Source: Coffea arabica
Lineage: Eukaryota > Streptophyta > Magnoliopsida > Gentianales > Rubiaceae
Direction: 5' to 3'
Assembly: GCF_036785885.1 (NCBI RefSeq)
Contig: NC_092323.1
Coordinates: 4,256,501 to 4,320,500 of the forward strand
DNA: 64,000 nt
This document shows positions 58,939-63,584 of the stretch, in pieces; the stretch's first letter is position 1, and every line of letters starts with the position of its first letter. Below the pieces are notes generated by a model that made no database searches, was not told the origin of the DNA, and saw nothing but the letters and a program-made list of their open reading frames with translations. Both the position numbers and the translations under genes were made by a program.

Positions 58939-61900
58939 ATGCTTGTACCCAAACTATCATTTCTTTTCCTTTTCCTTCTGCACTTCTATTTCACAACCAT
59001 CTCTGCCAGTCATATCCCAGTTCTTGATAACATAGCCATTTCCAGCGGTTCTTCTGGCGTCTTAACTGCATCCAATGGCCGCGTTTGGGTTGGAGATACC
59101 GGTTCCAAATCTTCCACGTTGCTGCAATTGAGTGGCAAATCAACCAAGTCAAGAGTCATCCACCATCCAGCTGCCTCCGTGGATGCTGTCCCCTACCTGA
59201 CCGCACGCATATCTCATCACCACTTCACCTACACATTCCCCGTCAAGCCTGGCCAGAAAATCATCCGTCTGCACTTCAACCCTGTTTCATACAAGAATTT
59301 CAAGAAGTCTAGAGCTCTTTTTTCCGTCAAAGCCGGTCCTTACACCCTTCTCAGCAACTTCAATGGTTCCCTTACTGCTGGTGCTTCGGGGGCTGGGCAT
59401 TTTACTAGAGAATTCTGTGTCAATATAGAGGAAAATGAAGTATTGAGCATAACGTTCTCCCCAGATCAAGGAAACGAAGGTTCTTCAGATGACCGATATG
59501 CATTTGTCAACGGTATTGAGATTGTCTGCATGCCTGCTGGTCTTTATTTCACCCCCGATGATGGCCTGGGACCCTTTGTCGTTGGCCAGAAATACAGATT
59601 CTACATCGACAACAGCACCGCACTTGAGATGATTCAGCGGTTAAACATTGGCGGAAACTCCATTGCATCTGTTGAAGATGGAGGCATGTTCCGGTCATGG
59701 GATGAAGACCTCAATCACTTGCCACAAAACGGAAGCCTTGTAATTAAAAGGGTCATTCCAATCAAGTATACGCAGGCACCATCGTATATAGCACCAAAGA
59801 AAGTCTATCAAACTGCCAGGTCCATGGTTCCACATATGAATTTGAGAAGACGCAATCTTATGTGGAAAATACCAGTGGATTTGGGATTTAGATACTTGAT
59901 TAGGCTCCATTTCTCAGAGCTTGAGTTGGGGATAACGCAGTGCGGTGAGAGGGAGTTCAGGATTATCATAAATAATCAAGTCGCTGAAGATAGTGCTGAT
60001 GTCATCAAATGGGGTGCTGAACATGGAGTTGCAGTGTACAGGGACTATGTTGTGCTGATGGAGGGAGATAGGATGGAAGGTAAGCGTTATCTAAACATCA
60101 CCTTCCAGCCAAAATTGGTGTTAAGCGGTAAAGAAACAGATGGGATCCTCAATGGGATGGAAATATTCAAGTTGAGCAACCCTGATAACAATCTAGCAAG
60201 CATGAGGACCATCGAATTTGTACGGAGTTCCAGATCTCAGAAACAAGGGGACAAAAAGACACAGTCTTTTGGCCGTAAGAATGCAGTTGCAACGGCGCTG
60301 ACTGTTATAATCACTTTGTTGAATGTCAGTGTGTATTATATCAGGCGTCTTTCAGAAACTAGTGCCAGGAACTTGCGTTCGTCATCCTCAGAAAAATTTT
60401 GCCGCCTATTTTCAATTCATGAGATCCGATCAGCAACCAACGATTTCAGTCATGAATTCCTCATTGGCAGTGGTGGATATGGTAGAGTGTATAAAGGAAG
60501 CATTGATGGAGGAGCTACAACCGTTGCAATTAAGCGATTGAAATCAGAGTCTAGGCAAGGCGAAAACGAGTTTTGGACAGAGATAAAGATGCTATCCAGG
60601 CTCCGCCATGAGCATCTTGTCCCTCTGATTGGTTACTGCAATGAAGGTCAAGAGATGATACTGGTATACGAGTATATGCCAAAAGGAACAGTTGCTGATC
60701 ATCTTTACAAGATTGGTAGGCATGGTGGTTGTGCTCCTCCTCTCTCTTGGGAACAGCGGCTTAAGATCTGTATCGGTGCGGCACGTGGTTTGTACTTTCT
60801 TCACACCTCTCGACAGAGGGTAATCCACCGGGATGTGAAGAGCTCGAACATTCTGCTGGACGAGAATTGGGTGGCTAAGATTTCAGACTTCGGCCTGTCA
60901 AAGATGGGAGCACCTAACGAGTCAATTACACATATCAGTACCAATGTCAAAGGGACATTTGGGTATTTAGATCCAGAGTATTTCTTGACTCGCAAATTGA
61001 CACGAAAATCTGACGTGTATGCTTTTGGAGTGGTGCTGTTTGAAGTGCTGTCTGGAAGGCCAGCTGTGGACTTACGACTTGAAGAGGAGAAACACAGCTT
61101 AGCTGCGTGGGCACGATACTGCATGAGAAAGGGAAAAGTCGATAACCTCATCGACCGTAATCTGATAGGACAAATCTCCCCAGCTTGCTTAAAGGTGTTT
61201 GTTGGAATAGCAGGGAGGTGCGTGGATACGCATCCACATGAACGGCCTGCTATGGCTGATGTTGTCATACCCCTTGAGTTAGCATTGGTGCTGCAACAGA
61301 GCCCAGGTTCCACAGAACAGGCAGAAGAAGACGATGATATCAACAACGTTGCAAGAAGTTCCAGTGAACAAAGTGATGGTGTTTTCTCATTTGATGAATT
61401 ATCTGTTAACCCCTCCAATGGAGGAATGGAGCAGAATGTCTCCAAAGAGCTTTCAGGTGCTGCTCCTGGAACAAAAGAAACTTATGTTCTCAAGAATTCA
61501 AAGAAGGATAACAGTTCCAACAATGCAACATCATCAAGATGGTGGTGGGATCCATTTGGGCTTGTGCCAAGAAGTCCATCAAAAACGAAAGCTTCAGCAC
61601 TACATGAAGGGCTCCGCCAATTCCACATCCAAGAGATACGAAAAGCCACCAATAATTTCCAGAACAGTTTCATCGTTGGCTTTGGAGGCTTGGACAGTGT
61701 GTACAAGGGCCTTGTGGATGATATCCCAAGAATTGTGGCGGTCAGACGATCAAGCAGTAGAGAATCAAGACTTTCGATGGCACGTGAATTGCAATCAAAG
61801 ATGGAAATGGTCCCTTCACTAAAACATGCTCATGTCGTAACTCTGATCGGTTATTGCAATGATGAAGCTGAACTGATGCTTGTGTATGAGTACATGGCCA

Positions 61901-62517
61901 ATGGAAGCCTCCATGATCATTTATGTGACCCTAACAAGGATCCACTCCCATGGAAGCGGAGACTTCAAATCTGCATTGGCGTAGCACGAGGATTGTCCCA
62001 TCTCCAGTCCACTGTTAAACTAACGAATCTCCACTGCAACTTGAAGTCAACCAACATTTTGTTAGACGAGAACTGGGTGGCCAAGGTTTCAGACATTGGG
62101 TTATCCCGAAGAAGAGGAGTCAGTGGTGCGCATACAATTGTTAGAGGTGACTGGGGTTCTCTGGACTCAGACTATATACTGGATGACAGATTAACAGAAA
62201 AATCTTACGTATTCTCATTTGGCTTGCTACTGTTTGAGGTACTCTGTGCCACTAAAGAATCAACTCATTGGTTGGATGAGGATCAGGTAAGTCTGGCTCA
62301 GTGGATAAAATCAGGCATAAGAAACAACCTCTCTGGCAACATTGACCCATGCCTAGCTGGTAAAATTGCACCTGAATGCTGTAGGATATTTGCAGAAACA
62401 GCCATTAAATGTCTGCTTGATAAGGGTTCTGAACGACCATCAATGAATGACATAGTGGCAAGTCTTGAGGCTGCGCTTAAGCTGCAAGAAGCGTCAGACA
62501 ATGACGAGGGTGTTTAA
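58939..62517 (+). CDS. FERONIA-type (CrRLK1L) malectin-like receptor with kinase plus pseudokinase
   Basis: A single uninterrupted exon encodes 1192 residues; FERONIA has about 895. Order: signal peptide (1-23), a malectin-like ectodomain (about 27-430, with YQTARSM, PVDLGFRYLIRLHFSE and LNGMEIFKL), a transmembrane segment (about 449-469), an arginine-rich juxtamembrane stretch, a first kinase domain (from about 492), an acidic serine-rich linker (about 785-890), and a second kinase-like domain (from about 895). Kinase 1 looks active: GSGGYGRV loop, Lys532 in VAIK, HRD Asp632, DFG at 650-652 and GTFGYLDPEY. Domain 2 has GFGGLDSV, Arg936 in place of the lysine, HCN (Asn1034) for HRD, and DIG for DFG, so it is a predicted pseudokinase. 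CrRLK1L receptors sense RALF peptides and cell-wall state at the plasma membrane. A divergent RALF-like gene lies 0.7 kb downstream. Lack of introns fits CrRLK1L genes. Confidence 0.93.
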   Translation: MLVPKLSFLFLFLLHFYFTTISASHIPVLDNIAISSGSSGVLTASNGRVWVGDTGSKSSTLLQLSGKSTKSRVIHHPAASVDAVPYLTARISHHHFTYTFPVKPGQKIIRLHFNPVSYKNFKKSRALFSVKAGPYTLLSNFNGSLTAGASGAGHFTREFCVNIEENEVLSITFSPDQGNEGSSDDRYAFVNGIEIVCMPAGLYFTPDDGLGPFVVGQKYRFYIDNSTALEMIQRLNIGGNSIASVEDGGMFRSWDEDLNHLPQNGSLVIKRVIPIKYTQAPSYIAPKKVYQTARSMVPHMNLRRRNLMWKIPVDLGFRYLIRLHFSELELGITQCGEREFRIIINNQVAEDSADVIKWGAEHGVAVYRDYVVLMEGDRMEGKRYLNITFQPKLVLSGKETDGILNGMEIFKLSNPDNNLASMRTIEFVRSSRSQKQGDKKTQSFGRKNAVATALTVIITLLNVSVYYIRRLSETSARNLRSSSSEKFCRLFSIHEIRSATNDFSHEFLIGSGGYGRVYKGSIDGGATTVAIKRLKSESRQGENEFWTEIKMLSRLRHEHLVPLIGYCNEGQEMILVYEYMPKGTVADHLYKIGRHGGCAPPLSWEQRLKICIGAARGLYFLHTSRQRVIHRDVKSSNILLDENWVAKISDFGLSKMGAPNESITHISTNVKGTFGYLDPEYFLTRKLTRKSDVYAFGVVLFEVLSGRPAVDLRLEEEKHSLAAWARYCMRKGKVDNLIDRNLIGQISPACLKVFVGIAGRCVDTHPHERPAMADVVIPLELALVLQQSPGSTEQAEEDDDINNVARSSSEQSDGVFSFDELSVNPSNGGMEQNVSKELSGAAPGTKETYVLKNSKKDNSSNNATSSRWWWDPFGLVPRSPSKTKASALHEGLRQFHIQEIRKATNNFQNSFIVGFGGLDSVYKGLVDDIPRIVAVRRSSSRESRLSMARELQSKMEMVPSLKHAHVVTLIGYCNDEAELMLVYEYMANGSLHDHLCDPNKDPLPWKRRLQICIGVARGLSHLQSTVKLTNLHCNLKSTNILLDENWVAKVSDIGLSRRRGVSGAHTIVRGDWGSLDSDYILDDRLTEKSYVFSFGLLLFEVLCATKESTHWLDEDQVSLAQWIKSGIRNNLSGNIDPCLAGKIAPECCRIFAETAIKCLLDKGSERPSMNDIVASLEAALKLQEASDNDEGV

Positions 62518-63230: not shown

Positions 63231-63584
63231 CTATCCCGCACGCTTGCAGCGATTGTAGGCTGTACATGGTCTATTATTCATATTAACTGGCACGAACCAA
63301 TTAGCATACTGAGCTGCATTGCAAACTGCCGGCCGCTGAAGAGCGCCGTAGGAAATTGCCTGTCCTTGTTGGAGTAGCAACCTGCCACCTGCAGAATAGT
63401 GCCTGAGAGACTCCCAATCCTCCTCATTTCCCCGGCTGCCGAAGAAGCAGTCTGCAAAAGCGCCATTGCACGACACCCGTGCATTGTTAAGCATATAAAA
63501 AGAAGCTGAAGCTCCTCCCAAGTCTTCTCCGAGGCTGAGCAACAAAACGAGGACAATAAAACTGCTGTATCTCTTTAATCCCAT
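63231..63584 (-). CDS. RALFL: RALF-like secreted signalling peptide, divergent
   Basis: RALF peptides are secreted, alkalinise the apoplast and bind FERONIA-family receptors with LLG co-receptors. This single-exon 117-residue precursor has a signal peptide (about 1-27, SSFIVLVLLLSL core), an acidic propeptide with the family pair SCNGAFADC, and a C-terminal mature region holding ISYGALQRPAVCN and ending RPCTAYNRCKRAG. The order matches RALF precursors (CNGSxxEC, then YISYGAL, then RGCxxxxRC). Two features are odd. The usual RRxL processing site is only GGRLLL here. The second of four expected mature cysteines (YYNC) is a Trp (YANW), leaving three. The 92-codon frame on the same strand (63278-63556) is a shadow. 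It lies tail-to-tail with the CrRLK1L gene. Confidence 0.82.
   Translation of the reverse strand: MGLKRYSSFIVLVLLLSLGEDLGGASASFYMLNNARVSCNGAFADCFFGSRGNEEDWESLRHYSAGGRLLLQQGQAISYGALQRPAVCNAAQYANWFVPVNMNNRPCTAYNRCKRAG

What the first reader, a model, noticed from the sequence alone, without database searches (positions are those of the whole stretch)
58939..62517. Malectin-like receptor with a kinase followed by a pseudokinase in one exon
One continuous 1192-codon frame joins a full FERONIA-type receptor to a second kinase-like domain. Seen directly: domain 1 keeps Lys532, HRD Asp632 and DFG; domain 2 has Arg936, HCN (Asn1034), DIG and a disturbed glycine loop. Known: tandem kinase-pseudokinase proteins act as immune sensors in cereals (for example Rpg1 and WTK1), but these are mostly cytosolic. 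A membrane receptor of the CrRLK1L family with this layout would link cell-wall or RALF sensing to an integrated pseudokinase. Inference: the second domain may be an internal regulator, a scaffold or a decoy for pathogen effectors. The two domains share RLKICIGAARGL/RLQICIGVARGL and NILLDENWVAK, which points to internal duplication.
Basis: partly seen in the sequence, partly recalled or inferred. Interest (0 to 1): 0.85.

Follow-up and report, generated by a model that had tools for sequence, protein, structure and literature searches.

The report
FERONIA-like receptor carrying a built-in pseudokinase
A coffee cell-surface receptor of the FERONIA type carries, behind its normal kinase, a second kinase-like domain that has lost its catalytic residues, and related plants keep the same layout, so it is a real and old receptor design and not an accident of this sequence.

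Summary
One 1192-codon frame (58939-62517, +) encodes a malectin-like ectodomain, transmembrane helix, intact kinase (D1), linker, and a kinase-like domain lacking catalytic residues (D2). The homeologous copy in the same genome (inferred Coffea arabica) has the same open frame; 88 of 312 proteins examined combine malectin, D1-type and D2-type kinases. In the window's orthogroup (38 sequences; Gentianales, Lamiales, Solanales) D1 keeps its catalytic K, HRD-D and DFG-D (58 of 58), while D2 carries its own nearly fixed residues (VAIK K to R 42 of 44; P to S 44 of 44; alphaF D to Y 38 of 44) and HRD-D and DFG-D vary. This fits retention of D2 as a non-catalytic module, most likely a cis regulator or scaffold of D1 (inference). 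Against: D2 evolves about 1.8 times faster than D1, and the coffee homeologs' D2 show 8 non-synonymous and 2 synonymous changes. Decoy and immune roles, ligand and transcripts are untested. Multi-kinase CrRLK1L-type proteins are in print (sunflower, cytosolic); none of the papers listed by my searches describes the receptor form. Noticed: a RALF-like peptide gene 0.7 kb downstream, in both subgenomes.

The parts
58939..62517 (+). Single open frame: malectin-like receptor with kinase (D1) and pseudokinase (D2), 1192 aa plus stop
   Evidence: open homeolog L021; full-length homologues
58939..59010 (+). Hydrophobic N-terminus, probable signal peptide (residues 1-24)
   Evidence: hydropathy peak at residues 1-24; no signal-peptide predictor was run
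59062..60171 (+). Malectin-like ectodomain (residues 42-411)
   Evidence: Pfam PF12819 E 2.4e-25 for the whole protein; best solved match AtFER ectodomain 6a5e, E 7.4e-84
60280..60342 (+). Transmembrane helix (about residues 448-468)
   Evidence: strongest hydropathy windows of the protein
60412..61305 (+). Kinase D1 (residues 492-789), catalytic residues present (K532, D632, D650)
   Evidence: best solved match AtFER kinase 7xdy, E 4.5e-110
61306..61623 (+). Linker (residues 790-895), predicted disordered; holds RWWWDPF at residues 867-873 (61537-61557)
   Evidence: block pLDDT 22-30 over residues 796-885; WW[DNG] in 35 of 38 orthogroup members and [RK]WWW in 24 of 38, against WW[DNG] in 9 of 53 other malectin-D1-D2 proteins
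61624..62496 (+). Pseudokinase D2 (residues 896-1186): glycine-loop D919, VAIK K to R936, alphaC E to K, HRD D to N1034, DPE to DSD (S1077, D1078), alphaF D to Y1090; D1052 of DFG kept
63231..63584 (-). RALF-like secreted peptide gene (117 aa), tail to tail with the receptor, 713 bases after its stop; a neighbour, not shown to belong to it
   Evidence: Pfam RALF E 2.1e-7; also beside the homeolog

Best explanation
It is a CrRLK1L-derived (FERONIA-type) receptor kinase with a second, catalytically degenerate kinase domain joined to its C-terminus by a flexible linker. Shown by sequence: ectodomain, transmembrane helix, D1 with a complete catalytic set, D2 with a predicted complete kinase fold but without the usual catalytic residues, and joint inheritance of the pair in Gentianales, Lamiales and Solanales. 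Inferred: the ectodomain senses a wall or peptide signal, possibly a RALF; D1 is the active kinase; D2 is held next to D1 (or to D1 of a partner in a dimer) and acts without catalysis, as allosteric regulator and docking platform for D1 and its substrates, in the manner of kinase-dead EFR towards BAK1 or of a JAK pseudokinase domain.
For: D1 kept catalytically: K, HRD-D and DFG-D each 58 of 58 in its orthogroup clade. D2 differs but is not free: 15 positions are at least 90% one residue in D1 and at least 85% another in D2 over 38 orthogroup members, among them G515/D919, K532/R936, P679/S1077, D692/Y1090; at 11 of the 15 D2 departs from AtFER, at 4 D1 does. Strictly catalytic D2 positions vary (HRD-D 18 of 44, DFG-D 14 of 44). 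D2 identity to the window is 46-67% outside the three nearest relatives, too much for neutral drift over that span (inference). Orthogroup support 99 (D1) and 100 (D2); both trees recover the Lamiales and Gentianales groups. Between paralogous tandem receptors of the same genome D2 dN/dS is 0.28-0.33 against 0.22-0.24 for D1 (three non-independent comparisons). D2 alone: pTM 0.79, best structural match AtFER kinase. Precedent: abstract of PMC11259431: a kinase-dead EFR still enhances BAK1 activity.
Against: No functional data. Joint model of D1-linker-D2: pTM 0.49, linker disordered, so no arrangement of D1 and D2 is predicted. D2 evolves 1.83 times faster than D1 (median of 120 pairs). Between the two coffee homeologs D2 shows 8 non-synonymous and 2 synonymous changes (dN/dS 1.24) against 4 and 9 in D1 (0.14); Fisher p 0.08 against the rest of the gene, 0.036 against D1: D2 may be relaxed in this coffee gene. 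JAK, an analogy, has the reverse domain order (recalled).
Confidence: 0.5

Rival explanations
1. D2 is an integrated decoy: it imitates a kinase that pathogen effectors target (such as the FERONIA kinase it most resembles), and its modification activates D1 or a partner immune receptor, as discussed for cytosolic tandem kinases.
For: Kinase-pseudokinase layout as in WTK1 and RPG1 (passages of PMC6170490). D2 is 47% identical to the AtFER kinase. Fast evolution of D2. Sunflower CrRLK1L-1 double kinases are among the candidates in the OrDeb2 broomrape-resistance interval (passages of PMC8866362). Four Solanales proteins have the orthogroup's D1 with a D2 of another lineage, which could be module exchange.
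Against: The orthogroup keeps D2 residues fixed across three plant orders, more like a standing regulator than a diversifying decoy. No expression, effector or resistance data here. The sunflower candidates lack ectodomain and transmembrane helix.
Confidence: 0.2
2. D2 is a passenger: a duplicated kinase that lost its job and is decaying in coffee while the receptor works through D1.
For: 8 non-synonymous against 2 synonymous changes in D2 between homeologs; the window copy has I1053 where the homeolog and three relatives have F; catalytic residues vary across the orthogroup.
Against: Frame open in both homeologs and D2 complete in 38 orthogroup members; 69 of 291 D2 sites at 90% identity or more in them; nearly fixed non-canonical residues; D2 dN/dS 0.28-0.33 between coffee tandem paralogs and 0.16 and 0.35 in the two other presumed homeolog pairs. 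Ten changes are too few to prove relaxation.
Confidence: 0.15
3. D2 still binds nucleotide or has residual catalysis and is a second working kinase.
For: D1052 of DFG and the catalytic-loop Asn are kept in the window; some relatives keep HRD-D (18 of 44). WTK7-TM needed both kinase domains for activity in vitro (abstract and passages of PMC11006675).
Against: VAIK Lys to Arg in 42 of 44 and alphaC Glu to Lys or Arg in 38 of 44 remove the usual ATP-anchoring pair; alphaF Asp to Tyr in 38 of 44.
Confidence: 0.07
4. The frame is two genes or an assembly join.
For: Gene models with 4 to 11 kinase matches occur among the hits, so fusions by annotation exist. No transcript was examined.
Against: No stop or gap between the domains; same frame in the homeolog; same architecture and a conserved linker motif in other species.
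Confidence: 0.02

Closest known systems
FERONIA and other CrRLK1L receptor kinases (one kinase domain)
   Same: Malectin-like ectodomain, transmembrane helix, RLK-Pelle kinase; for ectodomain, D1 and D2 alike AtFER is the best solved match by sequence
   Different: Canonical members have one kinase (passage of PMC9959574), as do the single-kinase CrRLK1Ls read from this genome; here a linker and a pseudokinase follow
Plant tandem kinase-pseudokinases (WTK1/Yr15, RPG1)
   Same: Kinase followed by a kinase-like domain lacking key residues
   Different: The 92 proteins collected in 2018 had no additional conserved domains (passage of PMC6170490); this one has an ectodomain and an N-terminal-side transmembrane helix. 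No resistance role shown
WTK7-TM (Pm36)
   Same: Membrane-associated tandem kinase
   Different: Transmembrane helix at the C-terminus, 667 residues, 12 exons (passages of PMC11006675)
Sunflower RLK-Pelle-CrRLK1L-1 double kinases
   Same: Same kinase subfamily, two kinase domains, active-site signatures in the first only (passages of PMC8866362); 67 sunflower CrRLK1L-1 proteins have multiple kinase domains (passages of PMC11646777)
   Different: The four CrRLK1L-1 kinases of the OrDeb2 interval lack transmembrane and extracellular domains
Wheat RLK TraesCS5D02G357700.1
   Same: A receptor-like kinase noted with two kinase domains (passage of PMC11968617)
   Different: [quoted passage not shown] its family relation to this one was not tested
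Kinase-dead EFR with BAK1; Janus kinases
   Same: A kinase fold regulating another kinase without catalysis (works like, proposed)
   Different: EFR and BAK1 are separate chains (abstract of PMC11259431); in JAKs the pseudokinase precedes the kinase (recalled). Not the same family

Membership tests
CrRLK1L receptor kinases | malectin-like ectodomain | tested here: met
   PF12819 E 2.4e-25; AtFER ectodomain E 7.4e-84
CrRLK1L receptor kinases | single transmembrane helix between ectodomain and kinase | tested here: met
   hydropathy only
CrRLK1L receptor kinases | kinase falls among CrRLK1L kinases | tested here: met
   D1 and D2 both nest among the coffee CrRLK1L kinases and AtFER in a tree rooted on Pto
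CrRLK1L receptor kinases | canonical layout with one kinase domain | tested here: not met
   two; so described as a CrRLK1L-derived variant, not a canonical member
CrRLK1L receptor kinases | RALF and LLG co-receptor binding | not testable with these tools
   needs binding assays
Tandem kinase-pseudokinases (Klymiuk 2018) | two kinase domains in tandem, second lacking key residues | tested here: met
Tandem kinase-pseudokinases (Klymiuk 2018) | no additional conserved domains | tested here: not met
   ectodomain and transmembrane helix present; not filed as a member in that strict sense
Tandem kinase-pseudokinases (Klymiuk 2018) | disease-resistance function | not testable with these tools
   no functional data
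RALF peptides (neighbour gene) | RALF domain with conserved cysteines after a secretion signal | tested here: inconclusive
   PF05498 E 2.1e-7; the window copy has Trp where the homeologous copy has the second Cys of the mature region

The most novel reading that the evidence does not exclude
Asterids have a distinct class of cell-surface receptor: a FERONIA-type sensor with a fixed pseudokinase partner covalently attached, so that ligand-sensing receptor, active kinase and non-catalytic activator lie in one chain; in coffee it is also linked to a RALF-like ligand gene. D2 modules are exchangeable between receptors, which would tie wall sensing to tandem-kinase immunity.
Probability: 0.25. Interest if true: 0.78.

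Novelty: new variant of a known kind. Interest (0 to 1): 0.5.

Why it matters
If D2 regulates D1 in cis, this is a receptor in which kinase-pseudokinase regulation can be studied in one polypeptide at the plasma membrane, joining two fields usually kept apart: FERONIA/RALF wall sensing and tandem-kinase immunity. It also suggests that surveys of this receptor family in asterid crops should record the number of kinase domains per receptor.

Tried and rejected
Annotation fusion: rejected on the homeolog and other species. Recent internal duplication of D1 into D2 within this gene: rejected; each domain groups with the same domain of orthologues. Shared motifs as proof of duplication: rejected, AtFER has them too. 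A D1-D2 contact from structure prediction: none predicted. RALF beside other coffee tandem receptors: none in the fetched loci, whose flanks are only a few kb; the nearest of the 11 RALF-like hits in the genome to the C3/C4 tandem cluster is about 4.6 Mb away. Rfam at gathering thresholds and ARAGORN on the window: no hits. dN/dS between species: not possible, no DNA of relatives was at hand. The 2025 survey of tandem kinases across plants (recalled) is not held, so I cannot exclude that it lists such receptors. Term searches within the tobacco paper, the 57-species paper, the tomato paper and the poplar paper gave no passage on two kinase domains; the cotton kinome paper and the wheat review mention multi-kinase proteins of other subfamilies.

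Limits of counts. Each protein search lists only its best 120 hits (311 proteins in all). Searches used 600-residue slices of the window on purpose, so that only proteins of about 330-1050 residues came in; the 88, 76 and 18 therefore describe a steered sample and are no frequencies. An ectodomain was counted if phmmer with the window's ectodomain matched more than 150 residues at E below 1e-8. Kinase matches spanning fewer than 230 profile positions were left out of the tree (565 domains plus AtFER and Pto kept). The tree is a hand-picked 142 sequences; near-identical coffee copies were dropped. Results there against a simple D1/D2 story: deep nodes 75 and 66; a lineage of second kinases (Daucus, Cuscuta, part of Solanaceae, Rhododendron, Cinchona) on the D1 side with support 53-61; first kinases of Gossypium, Theobroma and Morus on the D2 side. 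Intron-free structure was seen only in coffee; for other species I saw protein records.
Full report
What is there. The frame 58939-62517 on the + strand is open for 1192 codons with an in-frame stop just upstream. Pfam finds a malectin-like ectodomain and two kinase stretches. Hydropathy peaks fall at the N-terminus and at about residues 448-468. D1 has a complete catalytic set. D2 has Asp919 in the glycine loop, Arg936 for the VAIK lysine, Lys for the alphaC glutamate, Asn1034 for the HRD aspartate, DSD for DPE and Tyr1090 for the alphaF aspartate, but keeps Asp1052 of DFG.

It is a real gene in its genome. The window lies at G000:C14:4256501-4320500 of a 1.198 Gb assembly. I infer Coffea arabica: the homeologous copy on C13 sits with P0001, a protein named Coffea arabica, at zero branch length. 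The homeolog has a 1193-aa open frame, and the two stretches align at 95% identity over 5.9 kb.

It is not unique. Among 312 proteins (311 hits plus the window) 88 have malectin, D1-clade and D2-clade kinases, 76 have the two kinases without a detected ectodomain, and 18 have malectin and one D1-clade kinase; the sample was steered by length, so these are no frequencies. Named sources of the first kind include Rubiaceae, Lamiales, Solanales, Ericales, Cornales and Asteraceae (order names from general knowledge). Coffee itself has further tandem receptors on C3 and C4 (L032, L033, L035, L039) beside single-kinase CrRLK1Ls.

Descent. In a FastTree of 567 kinase sequences the window's D1 lies in a clade of 264 that are mostly first kinases and its D2 in a clade of 266 that are mostly later ones; support .981 and .903, joint node .926, AtFER outside. 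The clades are not pure: the D1 clade holds 8 second-of-two kinases, the D2 clade 4 first-of-two and 11 first-of-three. In an IQ-TREE of 142 sequences the clade of 116 holding both has support 99 and excludes AtFER and its coffee relative L018, but the deep D1 and D2 nodes have only 75 and 66, one lineage of second kinases falls on the D1 side, and first kinases of Morus, Gossypium and Theobroma fall on the D2 side. The orthogroup is robust: D1 n=23, support 99; D2 n=18, support 100. Both trees recover the Lamiales (100, 100) and Gentianales (96, 100) groups, the latter with four unnamed sequences; Ipomoea and Solanaceae form one group in D2 (98) but successive branches in D1. The pair was thus probably joined before these orders separated. 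In Gossypium and Theobroma, kinase copies of one protein group with one another, so kinase duplication also happened independently in this subfamily.

Is D2 constrained? In the orthogroup clades D1 keeps K, HRD-D and DFG-D in 58 of 58. D2 has Arg for K in 42 of 44, Asp in the glycine loop in 40 of 44, Ser for Pro in 44 of 44, Tyr for alphaF Asp in 38 of 44, but HRD-D in 18 of 44 and DFG-D in 14 of 44. Fifteen positions are nearly fixed in each domain (at least 90% in D1, 85% in D2; 38 members each) and differ between them; at 11 D2 departs from AtFER, at 4 D1 does. D2 changes 1.83 times faster than D1 (median of 120 pairs among 16 members; Spearman .93). 69 of 291 D2 sites and 135 of 298 D1 sites are at least 90% identical. 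Between coffee tandem paralogs dN/dS is 0.28-0.33 for D2 and 0.22-0.24 for D1 (three comparisons, not independent); window against L033 gives 0.21 and 0.16 with saturated dS. Window against homeolog: ectodomain part 0.57, D1 0.14, linker 0.14, D2 1.24, the last from 10 changes; Fisher p 0.08 for D2 against the rest of the gene and 0.036 against D1. Two other presumed homeolog pairs give D2 0.16 and 0.35, D1 0.51 and 0.10. So D2 is constrained in general and perhaps relaxed in this coffee gene.

Mechanism. The most likely reading is a receptor whose active kinase D1 is regulated, or whose partners are recruited, by the covalently attached non-catalytic D2. Shown: architecture, conservation, loss of catalytic residues. 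Inferred: regulation, ligand, output. Kinase-dead EFR enhancing BAK1 is the best plant precedent seen (abstract). The decoy reading stays open.

Known work. Tandem kinase-pseudokinases collected in 2018 had no additional domains (passages). WTK7-TM is membrane-associated with a C-terminal helix (passages). Sunflower CrRLK1L-1 double kinases without transmembrane or extracellular domains are candidates at OrDeb2 (passages), similar ones at OrAnom1 (passages), and 67 sunflower CrRLK1L-1 proteins with multiple kinase domains are counted (passages). [quoted passage not shown] Among the rows listed by searches (capped lists of an open-access library) I saw no title or abstract describing the malectin-kinase-pseudokinase receptor; papers outside the library were not seen. 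Database entries already name such proteins FERONIA-like.

Neighbour. A RALF-like gene lies tail to tail 713 bases after the stop, and at the homeolog too. A tea gene model (P0264) runs from two kinases into a RALF, in the same orientation, unlike coffee, so shared synteny is not shown.

Noticed in passing
63231-63584 (-): RALF-like peptide gene 713 bases from the receptor, tail to tail, also at the homeolog; the window copy has Trp at a cysteine position and the homeologous copy has a one-base length difference near the start. A potential ligand gene beside a FERONIA-type receptor.
   Followed up: partly
P0264 (Camellia sinensis, TEA_015097), residues about 662-779: Gene model joins two CrRLK1L-type kinases and a RALF, suggesting a RALF gene next to a tandem kinase in tea as well.
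   Followed up: partly
P0045, P0049, P0053 (Solanaceae), P0068 (Cuscuta): First kinase belongs to the window's orthogroup but the second belongs to another second-kinase lineage: domain exchange, or whole-gene duplication with conversion.
   Followed up: partly
L003-L017 (G000 C11, C12, C21, C22): Clusters of closely similar malectin receptors with one kinase in the same genome, branching just outside the tandem clade together with a Nyssa kinase.
   Followed up: no
residues 867-873, 61537-61557: Conserved RWWWDPF-type motif in an otherwise disordered linker just before D2; function unknown.
   Followed up: partly
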